Source: Akkermansia sp.
Lineage (GTDB): Bacteria > Verrucomicrobiota > Verrucomicrobiia > Verrucomicrobiales > Akkermansiaceae
Direction: 5' to 3'
DNA length: 64,000 bases
Assembly (NCBI GenBank): GCA_017937215.1
Contig: JAGBDZ010000094.1
Coordinates: 62,001 to 126,000 of the forward strand
The notes below the pieces were generated by a model, which was not told where the DNA came from, ran no database searches, and saw nothing but the letters and a program-made list of their open reading frames with translations. Both the position numbers and the translations under genes were made by a program. Shown here piece after piece: positions 49,046 to 56,017 of the stretch (the stretch's first letter is position 1; each line of letters opens with the position of its first letter).

Positions 49046-50110
49046 ATGAACCAATATATAACAGACGACGTACGTCTCACGGGTATTCGCCCGCTGATTT
49101 CCCCCGCCATTCTCATGGAGGATTTTCCGGCCTCGCCGGAGGCCACCCGCATGGTCTTTGAAACGCGACACGCGTTTCAGAACATCCTCCACGGCAAAGA
49201 TGACCGCCTGGCAGTGATTGTGGGGCCCTGCTCCATTCACGACACCAAGGCAGCCATCGAATACGCCGGTCTTCTGGCCGAAGCTGCTAAGAAGTACGAG
49301 AAGGACCTGCTGCTCATCATGCGCGTGTATTTTGAGAAGCCCCGCACCACCGTTGGCTGGAAAGGGCTCATCAACGACCCGTTCATGGATGAAACCTACA
49401 ACATCAACAGTGGTCTGCGCATGGCTCGCGGGCTCCTGGTGCGACTCGGCGAGATGGGGGTTCCTGCCGCCACCGAGTTCCTCGATGTGATTACCCCGCA
49501 GTATATCAGCGACCTCATCGTCTGGGGTGCCATCGGCGCCCGCACCACCGAAAGCCAGGTACACCGCGAACTGGCCAGCGGTCTTTCCATGCCTATCGGC
49601 TTCAAGAACGGCACCACCGGCTGCGTGCAGATTGCGGTGGATGCCATCGTCTCTGCCGAGCATCCGCACTGCTTCCTCTCCGTGACCAAGCAGGGCGTGT
49701 CCGCCATTGTCTCCACCAAGGGGAACGAAGGCTGCCACCTCATCCTGCGCGGCTCCACCGATGGGCCAAACTACGGTCCGGAACACGTGCAGCAGGCCTG
49801 GGCTACCCAGCAGAAAGCCGGTATCTCCAACCGCATCATGATTGACTGCTCCCACGGCAACAGCCACAAGGACTGGAAACAGCAGCCCACCGTGGCCTGC
49901 AGCGTGGCCGAACAGCTGGCCGCCGGCTGCGACCACATCGGTGCCGTCATGATTGAAAGCAACCTCTGCTCCGGCAACCAGAAATACGGCCCGGACATTA
50001 AGTACGGTGTCAGCATCACTGATGCCTGCATCGACTGGAACGGCACCCTCGGCATGCTCGATATGCTCGCCGCCGGTGTGCGCGCCCGCCGCACCAGGCT
50101 CGGTCGGTAA
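49046..50110 (+). CDS. 3-deoxy-7-phosphoheptulonate synthase, class I (AroG type)
   Basis: A 354-residue enzyme that condenses phosphoenolpyruvate and erythrose-4-phosphate, the first step of aromatic amino acid synthesis. IVGPCSIHDTKAA is at about 55-67, then LIMRVYFEKPRTTVGWKGL, ATEFLDVITPQY, GARTTESQVHRELASGLSMP and IMIDCSHGNSHKD. All metal and PEP ligands are present. Which feedback type (Phe, Tyr, Trp) cannot be read reliably. It starts 3 bases after the pilin-like gene and is thus probably expressed from its promoter. Confidence 0.93.
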   Translation: MNQYITDDVRLTGIRPLISPAILMEDFPASPEATRMVFETRHAFQNILHGKDDRLAVIVGPCSIHDTKAAIEYAGLLAEAAKKYEKDLLLIMRVYFEKPRTTVGWKGLINDPFMDETYNINSGLRMARGLLVRLGEMGVPAATEFLDVITPQYISDLIVWGAIGARTTESQVHRELASGLSMPIGFKNGTTGCVQIAVDAIVSAEHPHCFLSVTKQGVSAIVSTKGNEGCHLILRGSTDGPNYGPEHVQQAWATQQKAGISNRIMIDCSHGNSHKDWKQQPTVACSVAEQLAAGCDHIGAVMIESNLCSGNQKYGPDIKYGVSITDACIDWNGTLGMLDMLAAGVRARRTRLGR

Positions 50111-50131
50111 CCCGGATTTACCTCCAACGAA

Positions 50132-50166
50132 AATCCCCTGTGGTTCAAACCGCAGGGGATTTTGTT
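50132..50166 (+). terminator. Rho-independent terminator after DAHP synthase
   Basis: A 14-bp stem (50132-50145 with 50148-50161, one wobble) ends in a T-rich run. Confidence 0.88.
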
Positions 50167-50184: not shown

Positions 50185-50460
50185 TACGCGTTGGAATAAT
50201 TAATTCGCAACTGGATATTCAGCATCACCAGCAAGCAAATTGATTGATAAATCAGAGTTTAATTCGTCTCGGGCGGACGGAACGTCCGCGGAATTTTGAG
50301 CCCGACTGGGCGGAACTTTCCGTAGAGTCCGGGGTGTATCGTCCCCTGAATGGGGCTTAGTTTCACGCTCGCCATAGAAGGGCTAAACTCTGATTTATCA
50401 ATCCTTTCTCCAAGAAAATCGATTAGATTTCAGCGATGCCGTTAATTATTCCAACGCGTA
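50185..50460. repeat. 276-bp element with two nested perfect inverted repeats (MITE-like or structured RNA)
   Basis: The outer arms are 50185-50203 and 50442-50460, 19 of 19 complementary (TACGCGTTGGAATAATTAA). The inner arms are 50242-50261 and 50384-50403, 20 of 20 (GATTGATAAATCAGAGTTTA). The two 38-base spacers between outer and inner arms are equal in length but not complementary. The core (50262-50383) is GC-rich with a GCGGACG/CGTCCGC hairpin at 50273-50289. TA dinucleotides sit at both outer ends. No reading frame of interest lies inside; this covers the gene gap 50111-50590 together with the two terminators and the RHS promoter. Confidence 0.9.
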
Positions 50461-50480: not shown

Positions 50481-50521
50481 AGTGAGCATGGGAGACGAGA
50501 TTTCCCCATGCTCGCTTTTTT
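50481..50521 (+). terminator. Rho-independent terminator after the inverted-repeat element
   Basis: A 12-bp stem (AGTGAGCATGGG with CCCATGCTCGCT, 50481-50492 and 50505-50516) is followed by T6. No protein gene ends just before it, so it suggests that the palindromic element is transcribed. Confidence 0.9.
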
Positions 50522-50554: not shown

Positions 50555-50583
50555 TTGCTGCGGGGAAGAATCCGCTTTATGGT
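50555..50583 (+). promoter_or_regulatory. Promoter of the RHS/YD-repeat gene
   Basis: TTGCTG (50555-50560), 17-base spacer, TATGGT (50578-50583). The ATG at 50591 is 7 bases beyond the -10, which picks this start over TTG 50555. Confidence 0.65.
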
Positions 50584-50590
50584 ACTGTGC

Positions 50591-53500
50591 ATGGCAATTG
50601 GACCAGAAACCACTGCTGGCTCCGCCGCCTTTACCCGTGGCGAGAGTGCAACCATATCATCAACAACTAACCCTGAACCTGATTCCTCTATGAATAACAT
50701 GACACCCACAACTAATGACGGCATCGCTCCTGCCAGCGATACTCCCCGGACCCGCACCTACACGGAAATTGCTGCTTTCGGCAATCCCATCTGCAAACTG
50801 CCTGCCAGCGGGGAGGAGTTTAAGGAGCTTGAACTCGGTACCTTCACCATCAAAACAGGCGGAGCCAACGTGATGGCGCAAATCACGGTCGATGATGAGG
50901 GCGATCTCACCATTTTAGATTCCGCTGAGAACAAGATAATGTCCATCAGTTCCAAGGTAGGGGCCGACTGGCCCAAAACTCAGGACTCGACCTATTGGCA
51001 GAAAAAATCGGATTTGTTCTTCCTCCCGGCCGGAACCTATACCCTCACCGGTAATCTGAAGAATGTCGATATGGGCAGTTCCAATGTCAACAATCTTGCC
51101 TACTTCCGCTACGAGGTCGTTGCACAGTATACGGAAATCATCAATGATAACAGCACAGATAATGAGGAACCGGTGGTGGAAGACGATATGCAGGAAGAGC
51201 CGCCCGTGTGCAATCCCTGCGGCTGCTGCAGCCCGGATGGCGGCCCTGGAAACAAGCCCTCCGAACCGCTCCATAGCGAACCCGGCGCCGAATGCCCCGG
51301 TGGTGTCGAGCCTTCCGGTAATTCTCCTGCGTCTGCCCCGGCTGCCATCATGCTGGCAGATGATGCCGGAAGCACCCCGGTGGCGGGGCTCCGCAGCACC
51401 ACGATGCGTCGCAACTCCATCTGGGGCTGGAAGGCTCAGCTGCACGAAGGGGTGCTGACGATACGTCCCACCACGGGCCGCCGCATGAGCTTTGCTGTGC
51501 AGGAGGGCTCCTCCGTGGCCCTGCCCACCGGCCTCACCCGCCATCACAGTGTGCGGGTGGAGCTGCAGAATGCGGACCTGAGCGCCTGCACCACCGGTTC
51601 CCCCGCTTTCTGGACTCTCACCGAGGCTTCGGGCCGTCGCGTGCGTTTCGAAACAGCCACCGGCACTGTGGCGGCCGTGGTGGCCGCTTCCGGCAAGGTA
51701 ACCACCGCTGCCGAACACAGCGCCCAGGTGCAGGAGAACTTCGATGCTGCCGGCAACCTGCTTTCCTGCTATTCCCCCACGCAGGGTCTCATGCTCACCT
51801 CTGTGGATGAATCCGGCGCCACCGTCCTTTCCTGGTATACCCCCGCCCAGGTCAGCACCGATTCGGAGGGCAATTACACCACCACGGGCGAACCCTACAA
51901 GACCGCCGCCTATACCACCACCCTGGTCAATGGTGTGGAAACCACCACTGTGCTGCGCCAGCAGGCCGGGCTGCCCGCCCACTCCGTCACCCACGTGGTC
52001 GATGGCAATACTGTGACCGTCACCAAGGGTACGGGTGAGGATGCCATCATCCGCACTTGGGTCACCACTTACCCCGAGCCGGGCATGACTCAGCGTGTGG
52101 AAACCGTGCGCCGCGGGTCGGCGGATGCCGCCCCCGCTTCCTGCTCCTGCCAAGTGCGCAAGCTCTCCGCGGGCGGCTGGCTCACCATCAGCGAGACCGA
52201 GGGCTACGGCACTAACCTGGCCCGCACCACCTCCTACGAATACAACGCTCAGTTCCTCGTCTCCCGCATCAACCGCCCGGACGGCGGCTACACGGAATAC
52301 GAGTATGATGCCGATGGCCGCGTGACGAAGGAGACCACCCCCTGGGGTAATGGGGGTAAGAAGCGTACTCGATATGTGTACAATGCTAATTCCACCCGCT
52401 TCTACGATACCCGCCCGGTGAAGGTCTACACGGATTATCAGGATGCCGGCTCCACCGCCTGGCTCAATATCAAGGTGGTCGATTATACCTACGCGGATTC
52501 CGCCGATGTCATGCGAACCACTGCTACTACCTATGCTGCCGGTGTAAGCCATCAGCAGGTGAGCATCGAGGAATCCTACGGCGAATCCCCCGCCTATGCC
52601 TATGCTGCCGGCAAGCCGAAGTTCAGTCAGGAGGTTGACGGGGTGCAGACCTGGCATGACTACGAAGCCACCACGGAGCACGGCGCCGTGCACAAGCACA
52701 CCACCACCACCATGGCCGCCGGTGCGCTGGTGGCTGCTCAGAGCCGGAAGACGGAGGAGTTCATCGCGGCGGATGATACCGTCACCTTCGAGCAGGAGAG
52801 CATCTGGAACGGCACGGAGTGGCTGCTGCTGTCCACCACCGCTTATGAGTACGACGCCCAGCAGCGCGTAGTGAAGACCACCCGCGGCAATGGCCGCTTC
52901 TCCACAAGCTCGTGGATGTGCTGCGGCAAGCTCTCCGAGACCGATGAGGACGGCATCACCACCACCTATGGCTACAACTCCGCCCACGAACTGGTGGAAA
53001 GCATCCGCGCCGAGGTGAAGGATGGCGCGGTGGTGGTCACACCCGAAACCATCACCACCTATACCCGCGATGCCGCCGGGCGCACCCTGGGCACCCGCCG
53101 CGATACCGGCGCCATGACCACCACGGAAGCCACCGCCTATGATATCCTGGGCCGCGTGGTGAGCCGCACGGATGCGCTCGGCCGCGTGACCACCACCGCC
53201 TACAGCGCAGATGGTCTCACCACCACCGTGACCACCCCCGCCGGGGCCACCACCATCACGCAGCAGAACCCCGATGGTTCCACCGCCCGCATTTCCGGCA
53301 CGGCGCAGCGCGAGGTGGTGTATACCCACAGCGTGCAGGGCAACTGCCTGTGCGAAATGCAGCAGCTGGCGGATGGCACTATCATTGCCCAGACCACCAC
53401 CAATGGCTTCGGCCAGGTTGTGGTGCAGGCTCAGCCCAATACCCAGGGCGGCTTCATCTGCTCCCGCAGCGAATACAACGCCAAGGGGCAGCTGGTGAAA

Positions 53501-56017
53501 ACCTGGGCCGATACCGGCCTTGATACCACCCCGACTGCCGCCACGCTCTACGAGTATGACTCCATGGGCAATGTGGTGAAACAGACTCTCGCCCTGGCAG
53601 AGCAGCCTTCGCCGGAGAACTCCCCCATTACCGAATCTTCTTTCGGTGCGGAATCTCTGCAGGATGGTGTGTACAGCCTCACCACCACCACGCGCTACAA
53701 TGCCGCCGGCCAGCCGCTCTCCAGCGTGCAGAAGCAGCTCATCTCGCAGCTTTCGGGCACGCTGGAGTCGAAATCGGTTTTTGTCAGCGAACGCGGCTTG
53801 ACTTCCACGCAATGGACGGTGTATAGTGGAGGCACGAAACGAGTGCAATACAGTACGGTACCAGGCTCATCCATCACCGCCGAGACGGTGACGGTGGATG
53901 GAGTCGTGCGCTCGCAGAAGGATACCGCCGGTATCACGACCACCGCCACCCGCAGTTACACGGCAAATGGTATGGTGCTCACGCAGACGGATGGCCGAGG
54001 CAACACAACCACCACGGTGACAGATAAGGCCGGGCGCGCCCTCATGGTGACGGATGCCGCCGGTAACGTGACTACCACGGTCTACTGCGACTGCTGTGAC
54101 CAGCCTGCCACCATTACCGATGCTCAAGGCAACACCACTTGCTACCGCTATGACATCCGCGGCCGCAAGGTGGCGGAATGGGGCACGGGCATTCAACCCG
54201 CCACCTTCGGCTACGATGATGCCGGGAATATGACGAGTCTCACCACCTTCCGTCATCCGGGTGCCGTCATCAGCAGCGACCCGGCAGAATGGGAAGGCCT
54301 GGTGCAGGATACCACCACCTGGACCTTCGACCCCGCCACCGGGCTGGAGCTTAGCAAGACTTATGCGGACAACACCGCCGTGGTGAAGACCTACGATGCC
54401 CACAACCGCCTGGCCACGGAAACCAACGCCCGCGGCAGGGTGAAGGTGCATACCTACGAACATGCCCGCGGTCTGCTGCTTAATACCACCTGGTACCACC
54501 CCGCAGAGGAAGGCGGGGAAGCGGTTGCCGACAGTTATTCCCCGAGCCGCAGCTTCACCTACAACCACCTCGGCCTGCTCACGCAGGTTGTGGAAAATGC
54601 CTTGTCAGGCCAAAGCTCCGCAGGAGCGGCGGCTGACAGTACCCGTACCATCGGCTACAACCAGTACGGCGAGCAGGAAACGGATTCGCTGGTGGCGGAT
54701 AACGATACCCACCTCATCACCGAAACGCGCGATACCCAGGGCCGCTCCACGGGCTATGTGTACAGCAAGAACGGCAGCACCCAGCAGACGGTGACCACCG
54801 GCTACGGCACGGATGGCCGCATCGCAAGCGCCGGCTTCCTGCATGGTGGCGTGGAGCGGCAGTTCAGCTACTCTTACCTGCCTGGCACAAACATGCTGCA
54901 GACGCTCACCAAGCCGAATAACATGACGCTCACACAGAGCTACGAGCCGCAGCGCAACCTGCTCACCGGCATGCTCTACAAGCGTGGCAATACGGCAGTA
55001 GCCCAGCGTACCTACACTTACGATACGCTCGGTCGTCCGCTCACCCGCACCACCGCCAGCAATGGCCAGACGGTGAATGATACCTTCGGCTACAACAACC
55101 GCAGCGAACTTACCACCGCCACGGTGAACGGCGGCGCCTATGCTTACGATTACGATAACATCGGAAATCGTAAGACGGCCCAGGAGGCAGCGGAAGAGAT
55201 TACCGGCTACACGGCCAACAACCTCAACCAGTACACCGCCCTCACGGTGGATGGTGATGTCGACTTCCAGCCGGAGTACGATGCGGATGGCAACCAGACG
55301 CGCGTGAAGACCAGCACCGGCATTTGGACTGTGAGCTACGACGCCGAAAACCGCCCCCTCGATTTCTACCGGATCGATTCCACGGGCGGCACCACTGTGC
55401 ACTGCACCTATGACCACATGGGCCGCCGCGCCACAAAGCAAGTAACTGTGGGCAATAACGTGACGCTGCACCAGCTCTATATCTACCGCGGCTATCTGCA
55501 AATCGCCAGCATTGACCTCACCCGCAGCCACCACCCCGCGCTGTGGTATATCACCTGGGACCCGACGCAGCCCGTAGCCACCCGCCCGCTGGCCATCCAG
55601 AAGGACGGCTCCTGGTTCTCCGCCCCCGCTCGCCTTGCAAAGCAAGGGTTCCGCTCACAGGTGTGTTCGCGGCTCGGGGGCTGGTTGCTTAAGCCGCACC
55701 CAGCCTACGGCTGGGACCTCACCAAGAATATCTGTGAACTCTACGGCCCCTCCGGCTACATCCGCACCGCCTATACATACTCCCCCTATGGGCAGGTAAC
55801 CTCCACAGGGGATGTGGATCAGCCTATCCAATGGAGCAGTGAGTACAACGATACTGAACTCGGCCTGGTCTACTACAACTACCGCCACTACAACCCAGTG
55901 GATGGTAGGTGGACGGGGCGAGATCCTATTTCTTATTTTTCGGATAGGAATCTGTATACTAAGGATTTTCAAGAGGAGGAGTTTTATACAACCTTGAAAG
56001 AACTGATGAATCAATAA
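50591..56017 (+). CDS. Giant RHS/YD-repeat protein
   Basis: A 1808-residue protein. Residues 1-55 are Ser/Thr/Pro-rich without a clear signal peptide. About 60-185 is a strand-rich domain (GTFTIKTGG, AQITVDDEGDLTI, FFLPAGTYTLTG). A cysteine knot-like CNPCGCC lies near 206. YD repeats run from about 300 to 1750 (EYEYDADGRVTKE, YVYNAN, YDHMGRRATK). The RHS closing motif YNYRHYNPVDGRWTGRDPI is at about 1762-1780. Only 28 more residues follow (SYFSDRNLY then an unrelated acidic tail), coded by AT-rich DNA unlike the rest. RHS shells enclose C-terminal toxins. This copy's tip is replaced or truncated. Composition changes near base 55930. Confidence 0.9.
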   Translation: MAIGPETTAGSAAFTRGESATISSTTNPEPDSSMNNMTPTTNDGIAPASDTPRTRTYTEIAAFGNPICKLPASGEEFKELELGTFTIKTGGANVMAQITVDDEGDLTILDSAENKIMSISSKVGADWPKTQDSTYWQKKSDLFFLPAGTYTLTGNLKNVDMGSSNVNNLAYFRYEVVAQYTEIINDNSTDNEEPVVEDDMQEEPPVCNPCGCCSPDGGPGNKPSEPLHSEPGAECPGGVEPSGNSPASAPAAIMLADDAGSTPVAGLRSTTMRRNSIWGWKAQLHEGVLTIRPTTGRRMSFAVQEGSSVALPTGLTRHHSVRVELQNADLSACTTGSPAFWTLTEASGRRVRFETATGTVAAVVAASGKVTTAAEHSAQVQENFDAAGNLLSCYSPTQGLMLTSVDESGATVLSWYTPAQVSTDSEGNYTTTGEPYKTAAYTTTLVNGVETTTVLRQQAGLPAHSVTHVVDGNTVTVTKGTGEDAIIRTWVTTYPEPGMTQRVETVRRGSADAAPASCSCQVRKLSAGGWLTISETEGYGTNLARTTSYEYNAQFLVSRINRPDGGYTEYEYDADGRVTKETTPWGNGGKKRTRYVYNANSTRFYDTRPVKVYTDYQDAGSTAWLNIKVVDYTYADSADVMRTTATTYAAGVSHQQVSIEESYGESPAYAYAAGKPKFSQEVDGVQTWHDYEATTEHGAVHKHTTTTMAAGALVAAQSRKTEEFIAADDTVTFEQESIWNGTEWLLLSTTAYEYDAQQRVVKTTRGNGRFSTSSWMCCGKLSETDEDGITTTYGYNSAHELVESIRAEVKDGAVVVTPETITTYTRDAAGRTLGTRRDTGAMTTTEATAYDILGRVVSRTDALGRVTTTAYSADGLTTTVTTPAGATTITQQNPDGSTARISGTAQREVVYTHSVQGNCLCEMQQLADGTIIAQTTTNGFGQVVVQAQPNTQGGFICSRSEYNAKGQLVKTWADTGLDTTPTAATLYEYDSMGNVVKQTLALAEQPSPENSPITESSFGAESLQDGVYSLTTTTRYNAAGQPLSSVQKQLISQLSGTLESKSVFVSERGLTSTQWTVYSGGTKRVQYSTVPGSSITAETVTVDGVVRSQKDTAGITTTATRSYTANGMVLTQTDGRGNTTTTVTDKAGRALMVTDAAGNVTTTVYCDCCDQPATITDAQGNTTCYRYDIRGRKVAEWGTGIQPATFGYDDAGNMTSLTTFRHPGAVISSDPAEWEGLVQDTTTWTFDPATGLELSKTYADNTAVVKTYDAHNRLATETNARGRVKVHTYEHARGLLLNTTWYHPAEEGGEAVADSYSPSRSFTYNHLGLLTQVVENALSGQSSAGAAADSTRTIGYNQYGEQETDSLVADNDTHLITETRDTQGRSTGYVYSKNGSTQQTVTTGYGTDGRIASAGFLHGGVERQFSYSYLPGTNMLQTLTKPNNMTLTQSYEPQRNLLTGMLYKRGNTAVAQRTYTYDTLGRPLTRTTASNGQTVNDTFGYNNRSELTTATVNGGAYAYDYDNIGNRKTAQEAAEEITGYTANNLNQYTALTVDGDVDFQPEYDADGNQTRVKTSTGIWTVSYDAENRPLDFYRIDSTGGTTVHCTYDHMGRRATKQVTVGNNVTLHQLYIYRGYLQIASIDLTRSHHPALWYITWDPTQPVATRPLAIQKDGSWFSAPARLAKQGFRSQVCSRLGGWLLKPHPAYGWDLTKNICELYGPSGYIRTAYTYSPYGQVTSTGDVDQPIQWSSEYNDTELGLVYYNYRHYNPVDGRWTGRDPISYFSDRNLYTKDFQEEEFYTTLKELMNQ

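What the first reader, a model, noticed from the sequence alone, without database searches (positions are those of the whole stretch)
50185..50460. Nested perfect inverted repeats with equal spacers between two terminators
Outer arms of 19 bp and inner arms of 20 bp are both perfect, separated on each side by exactly 38 non-complementary bases, with a GC-rich core hairpin. TA at each outer end fits a TA target site (Tc1/mariner, IS630-type MITE), but a transcribed structured RNA is also possible: a potential promoter TTGGAA (50191-50196), 17 bases, GATATT (50214-50219) lies at the left end and a strong T6 terminator follows at 50481-50521, with no protein gene between. It lies just upstream of the RHS gene.
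Basis: partly seen in the sequence, partly recalled or inferred. Interest (0 to 1): 0.68.

Follow-up and report, generated by a model that had tools for sequence, protein, structure and literature searches.

The report
Miniature transposon with nested palindrome
This is a 274-base non-coding mobile element in a gut Akkermansia genome, with ends that match IS982-family transposons and a shrunken hairpin element of a second transposase system inside it; it is an ordinary kind of genomic parasite with an unusually neat Russian-doll layout.

Summary
In detail: 19-bp and 20-bp perfect arms with 38 bases between them on each side, far beyond chance (20 bp against at most 13 in 100 shuffles). It is a MITE, but not of the Tc1/mariner or IS630 type.
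The outer arm (ACGCGTTGGAATAATTA) is dispersed through the genus Akkermansia: 120 places in 16 of 59 genomes, up to 51 in one. It is identical to both termini of a 1,034-bp IS982-family insertion sequence in a relative. Nine of 26 two-ended copies carry 7-9 bp target duplications, as IS982 elements can. T does not always precede the arm, so TA targeting is rejected.
The core is the shrunken remnant of a different element. Its hairpin matches palindromes that bracket this genome's RAYT-type (Y1) transposase genes, and the hairpin stem covaries between copies. Related cores sit inside at least four other kinds of terminal sequence, and once with none.
The equal spacers are a coincidence. The outer arms do not covary, so a structured RNA is not needed to explain them. 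This copy lacks a target duplication and lies at a synteny break, and one flank fits another copy, which suggests recombination between copies. Function beyond mobility is not shown.

The parts
50186..50202 (+). Left terminal inverted repeat, ACGCGTTGGAATAATTA (IS982-type). The extra T (50185) and A (50203) extend the perfect arm by chance or local identity.
   Evidence: identical to both ends of the 1,034-bp IS982 element of G010
50443..50459 (-). Right terminal inverted repeat, same 17-mer on the - strand
50204..50241 (+). Left subterminal sequence of the MITE shell (38 nt). It resembles the left end of the C98 copy of the same genome (...CTGG.TTTTC.GCAT...GATTGATAAAT).
50404..50441 (+). Right subterminal sequence of the shell (38 nt). 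The shell end GATTAGATTTCAGYGATGCCGTTAATTATTCCAACGCGT recurs at G000:C148 and in G051 (C37).
50242..50261 (+). Left inner arm; border of the inner palindromic unit (AAATCAGAGTTT, variant of the border AAATTGGAATTT seen at other cores)
50384..50403 (-). Right inner arm; border of the inner palindromic unit
50262..50383 (+). Inner core: internally deleted RAYT-type palindrome
50273..50303 (+). Covarying hairpin GCGGACGGAACGTCCGC plus GGAATTTTGAGCCC, shared with many other copies and with the left arm of the RAYT gene locus on C17
   Evidence: 100% over 31 nt with C18; RAYT arm alignment score 30 against a shuffled maximum of 22; stem covariation
50130..50163 (+). Terminator of the upstream DAHP synthase gene (49046-50110); flank, not part of the element
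   Evidence: conserved in G077
50481..50521 (+). Second terminator-like hairpin right of the element; flank, possibly brought here by recombination
   Evidence: Sequence; similar hairpins follow orthologues of the gene beside the C146 copy

Best explanation
A 274-bp non-autonomous element (MITE). Its ends are those of IS982-family insertion sequences of Akkermansia, so an IS982 transposase supplied in trans would cut at ACGCGTTGG... and insert it with a duplication of about 8 bp. The interior is a shrunken palindromic unit of the kind that brackets RAYT/Y1 transposase genes, which either jumped into the shell or was captured by it. The two levels of inverted repeat are therefore two nested mobile elements with different transposases. 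The present copy is probably a fixed or recombinant relic: it has no target duplication, and the right flank differs from that of the closest relative, as expected after homologous recombination between dispersed copies. Shown: multiple copies, termini shared with IS982 elements, target duplications in sister copies, core shared with RAYT-gene flanks, synteny break. Inferred: trans-mobilisation, order of nesting, recombination.
For: TIR: 120 matches with at most 1 mismatch in 16 of 59 Akkermansia genomes, 1 match for the reversed control pattern. Organism: the exact 17-mer scan of 84,980 genomes is dominated by Akkermansia MAGs. IS982: the 1,045-bp element in G007 encodes a protein at E = 3.4e-58, 197 bits (cut-off 130), to NCBIfam IS982; the 1,034-bp element in G010 scores 167 bits and its two TIRs match the window arm 17/17. 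The closest relative G077 has a decayed copy between such TIRs, and the own genome has an IS982 fragment next to such a TIR. Target duplications of 7-9 bp with at most 1 mismatch in 9 of 26 copies, against 4 of 650 mismatched pairings. Core: 30 own-genome matches, mostly to the core; palindrome arms bracket RAYT genes; alignment of the C17 RAYT left arm with a dispersed core scores 54 (shuffled maximum 24) and with the window core 30 (maximum 22). Recombination: G077 has the element at the same site with another core and another downstream gene; right flank ATCGGGAT equals the left flank of the C146 copy.
Against: Only 17-18 bp are shared between the intact IS982 elements and this MITE. The TIR has the AC end and the TT at positions 15-16 of the published IS982 consensus, but G rather than T at position 9. 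The own genome, a 95%-complete MAG, shows no intact IS982 transposase. This copy has no target duplication, and no base-exact empty site was found. The window core is degenerate and matches the RAYT arm over only 31 nt.
Confidence: 0.87

Rival explanations
1. Tc1/mariner or IS630-type MITE with TA target duplication.
For: T before the left arm and A after the right arm in this copy.
Against: The base outside the arm is T in 68 of 124 ends, and A, C and G all occur. Target duplications are 7-9 bp. The transposase between identical TIRs is IS982.
Confidence: 0.03
2. A transcribed structured non-coding RNA about 300 nt long, with its own promoter and terminator, conserved for its fold.
For: Strong fold, z = -8.2; a terminator-like hairpin downstream; covariation in the small core hairpin.
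Against: No Rfam match. The promoter as proposed is not found by the scan. Outer arms differ between the two ends in 23 of 26 copies without compensation. Spacers and core are not conserved between copies, and the orthologous copy in G077 has a different core.
Confidence: 0.06
3. The whole nested unit is one element moved by a RAYT/Y1 transposase, and the outer TIR is incidental.
For: The core belongs to the RAYT-associated palindromes. Cores occur with several outer sequences and once naked.
Against: The outer TIR also bounds IS982 transposase genes and elements of varied interior, with 7-9 bp duplications. Y1 enzymes of this class do not normally leave such duplications (established knowledge).
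Confidence: 0.06

Closest known systems
MITECca01, IS982-derived MITE of Cardinium cOegib (PMC9769881)
   Same: About 240 bp, no gene, TIRs of an IS982-family element (ISCca4), mostly intergenic, many copies.
   Different: That MITE keeps a short subterminal stretch of its parent IS. Here only the TIR is shared with the intact IS982 elements examined, and the interior is a RAYT-type palindrome.
IS982 family insertion sequences (PMC7335449)
   Same: AC-starting TIRs, length about 1 kb for the autonomous relatives, direct repeats of variable length (2-10 bp), IS982 transposase model.
   Different: No transposase in this element; the TIR has G at position 9, where the published consensus has T.
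RAYT-associated palindromes / TIRs flanking RAYT genes (PMC3733652)
   Same: The core hairpins are the same kind as the arms flanking Y1 transposase genes here; that paper reports long TIRs flanking some RAYT genes and dispersed TIR families.
   Different: Here the palindrome remnant lies inside an IS982-type MITE shell. The GTAG tag was not tested.

Membership tests
IS982-derived MITE | TIRs shared with an autonomous IS982-family element | tested here: met
   17/17 at both ends of G010:C61:14754-15787, whose protein scores 167 bits (cut-off 130) to NF033520
IS982-derived MITE | Short, no transposase gene | tested here: met
   274 bp; no gene inside
IS982-derived MITE | Multiple dispersed copies | tested here: met
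   14 TIR matches in the own genome, 120 in the genus sample
IS982-derived MITE | Target duplication of 2-10 bp, when present (PMC7335449) | tested here: inconclusive
   9 of 26 family copies have 7-9 bp (null 4/650), but this copy has none
IS982-derived MITE | TIR consensus 5'-AC(N)6T(N)5TT (PMC7335449) | tested here: inconclusive
   AC and TT at 15-16 present, position 9 is G
IS982-derived MITE | Moved by IS982 transposase | not testable with these tools
   Needs a transposition assay
Tc1/mariner or IS630 MITE | TA target duplication | tested here: not met
   Flanking base not conserved; duplications 7-9 bp
RAYT-associated palindrome (core only) | Same palindrome flanks a RAYT gene | tested here: met
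   Dispersed cores match both sides of two Y1 genes and one side of a third; window core against the C17 arm
RAYT-associated palindrome (core only) | Hairpin conserved by compensatory change | tested here: met
   34 of 50 distinct contexts form the hairpin; up to three pair types per position
RAYT-associated palindrome (core only) | GTAG-type tag at the hairpin foot | not tested
   -
Known RNA family (Rfam) | Match at gathering score | tested here: not met
   0 matches in the window

The most novel reading that the evidence does not exclude
Akkermansia MITEs are modular: one palindromic cargo of the RAYT type is exchanged among at least five unrelated terminal shells (IS982-type and four others), so that hairpin elements lacking their own transposase spread by riding in the MITEs of unrelated transposases.
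Probability: 0.3. Interest if true: 0.5.

Novelty: new member of a known kind. Interest (0 to 1): 0.33.

Why it matters
It explains the structure as two nested mobile elements, names the enzyme likely to move it, and adds an apparently undescribed repeat family to Akkermansia (no paper in the held library links Akkermansia with IS982 or with MITEs). These repeats sit at contig ends and synteny breaks, so they probably fragment Akkermansia assemblies and drive rearrangement. The sharing of one core among several terminal shells would be a tractable case of cargo exchange between non-autonomous elements.

Tried and rejected
Rfam: nothing. TA-target MITE: rejected. Equal spacers as a design feature: related copies have very unequal spacers (about 13 and 47 nt in G049:C41, read), so this is coincidence. 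Base-exact empty site: tried with the joined flanks of the C98 copy and with the reconstructed C146/window junction; one side is conserved in relatives, the other not, so no exact empty site was obtained. Literature: no paper on Akkermansia with IS982, with MITE plus inverted repeat, or describing REPs of Akkermansia.

Full report
Observation. The sequence is as described: outer arms 50185-50203 / 50442-50460 (19 bp, perfect), inner arms 50242-50261 / 50384-50403 (20 bp, perfect), 38 bases between them on each side, and a GC-rich core. The longest perfect arm in 100 dinucleotide shuffles was 13 bp. There is no gene inside, no Rfam family, and the proposed promoter is not found by the scan.

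Copies. A search of the window's own genome (2.48 Mb, 151 contigs) found 30 places similar to parts of the element, mostly the core. The outer arm was searched as a pattern: 16 matches in the own genome with at most 3 mismatches, 1 for the reversed control. In 59 genomes of the genus, 120 matches with at most 1 mismatch fell in 16 genomes, 51 of them in one genome, with 1 control match. Many lie at contig ends, as dispersed repeats do in draft assemblies. A scan of 84,980 species genomes for the exact 17-mer returned mostly Akkermansia MAGs from animal guts, so the genus is Akkermansia.

What owns the ends. In G010 two arms facing each other, 17/17 identical to the window arm, bound a 1,034-bp element. 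In G007 near-identical arms bound a 1,045-bp element. Their ORFs match the DDE families PF01609 and PF13612 and the NCBIfam IS982 transposase model with 167 and 197 bits, cut-off 130. The closest relative, G077, has a decayed IS982 element between such arms, and the own genome has an IS982 fragment beside one. Of 26 two-ended copies of any interior, 9 have target duplications of 7-9 bp with at most one mismatch; pairing flanks of different copies gives 4 in 650. The IS982 review gives ends starting with AC and direct repeats of 2-10 bp (PMC7335449). The flanking base is T in 68 of 124 ends, so TA targeting is excluded. The outer arms of most copies differ between left and right without compensation, which fits transposase-binding sites rather than a helix kept for pairing.

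What the core is. The core shares 31 identical bases with a place on C18 and is closely similar at over 20 other places. The own genome has three Y1/RAYT-type transposase genes (PF01797). Dispersed cores match palindromic sequence on both sides of two of them and on one side of the third. A dispersed core aligns over 43 bases with the left arm of the C17 gene, border included (score 54, shuffled maximum 24); the window core aligns over 31 bases (30 against 22). The hairpin GCGGAC-GGAAC-GTCCGC occurs elsewhere as CGGGCT-GAA-AGCCCG and others, with changes on both sides of the stem. This fits an enzyme that acts on single-stranded hairpins, though an RNA constraint is not excluded. The window core is therefore most likely the internally deleted remnant of a RAYT-type palindromic unit.

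Modularity. Of 27 own-genome cores examined, 2 have an IS982-type arm upstream, 7 ACACGTGTCCCAAAG, 4 GGGACTTCTAAAAACTC, 4 GGCAATTAAAGATTGATG, 3 CTCCGGCAATTAAAG, and 7 none of these. A second core type of about 100 bp is 99% identical between an IS982-type shell on C98 and a different setting on C130, and 89% identical to the core of a 154-bp MITE with other TIRs in G051. In G051 it also occurs without a recognisable shell.

History of this copy. In G077 the DAHP synthase gene, its terminator and the left end of the element are at the same place (alignment runs to window base 50203), but the core and the downstream gene differ. Neither downstream region is found in the other genome. The right flank of the window copy, ATCGGGAT, equals the left flank of the C146 copy. 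Orthologues of the gene beside the C146 copy are followed by hairpins resembling the second terminator right of the window element. The simplest reading, an inference, is recombination between copies. It would explain the missing target duplication and the orphan second terminator.

Verdict. A non-autonomous IS982-type MITE carrying a nested, shrunken RAYT-type palindrome; a new member of a known kind. A comparable IS982-derived MITE is known from Cardinium (PMC9769881). No paper in the held library describes these repeats in Akkermansia; that library is incomplete.

Noticed in passing
L202 (G051), downstream of the DAHP synthase gene: A different complete MITE of 154 bp (TIR GGGGACTTCTAAAAACTCACTAAA, flanked by ACTT) lies at the corresponding intergenic place in another Akkermansia species, with the same type of core as the C98 copy.
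   Followed up: partly
L039 / G000:C12:322-357: Two IS982-type arms in direct tandem (TACGCGTTGGAATAATTA TACGTGTTGGAATAATTA) at one end of an element.
   Followed up: no
L062 (G000:C88) and L063 (G000:C150): RAYT/Y1 transposase genes lie inside long inverted repeats made of the palindrome arms that are dispersed without the gene elsewhere.
   Followed up: partly
G000:C98:6748-6955: A second IS982-type MITE also sits at a synteny break: only its right flank is conserved in relatives.
   Followed up: partly
window 50555-56017: Large RHS-repeat ORF (1,820 aa) just right of the element, absent at this place in the closest relative; the first 1 kb found no match in G077, G010 or G051.
   Followed up: no
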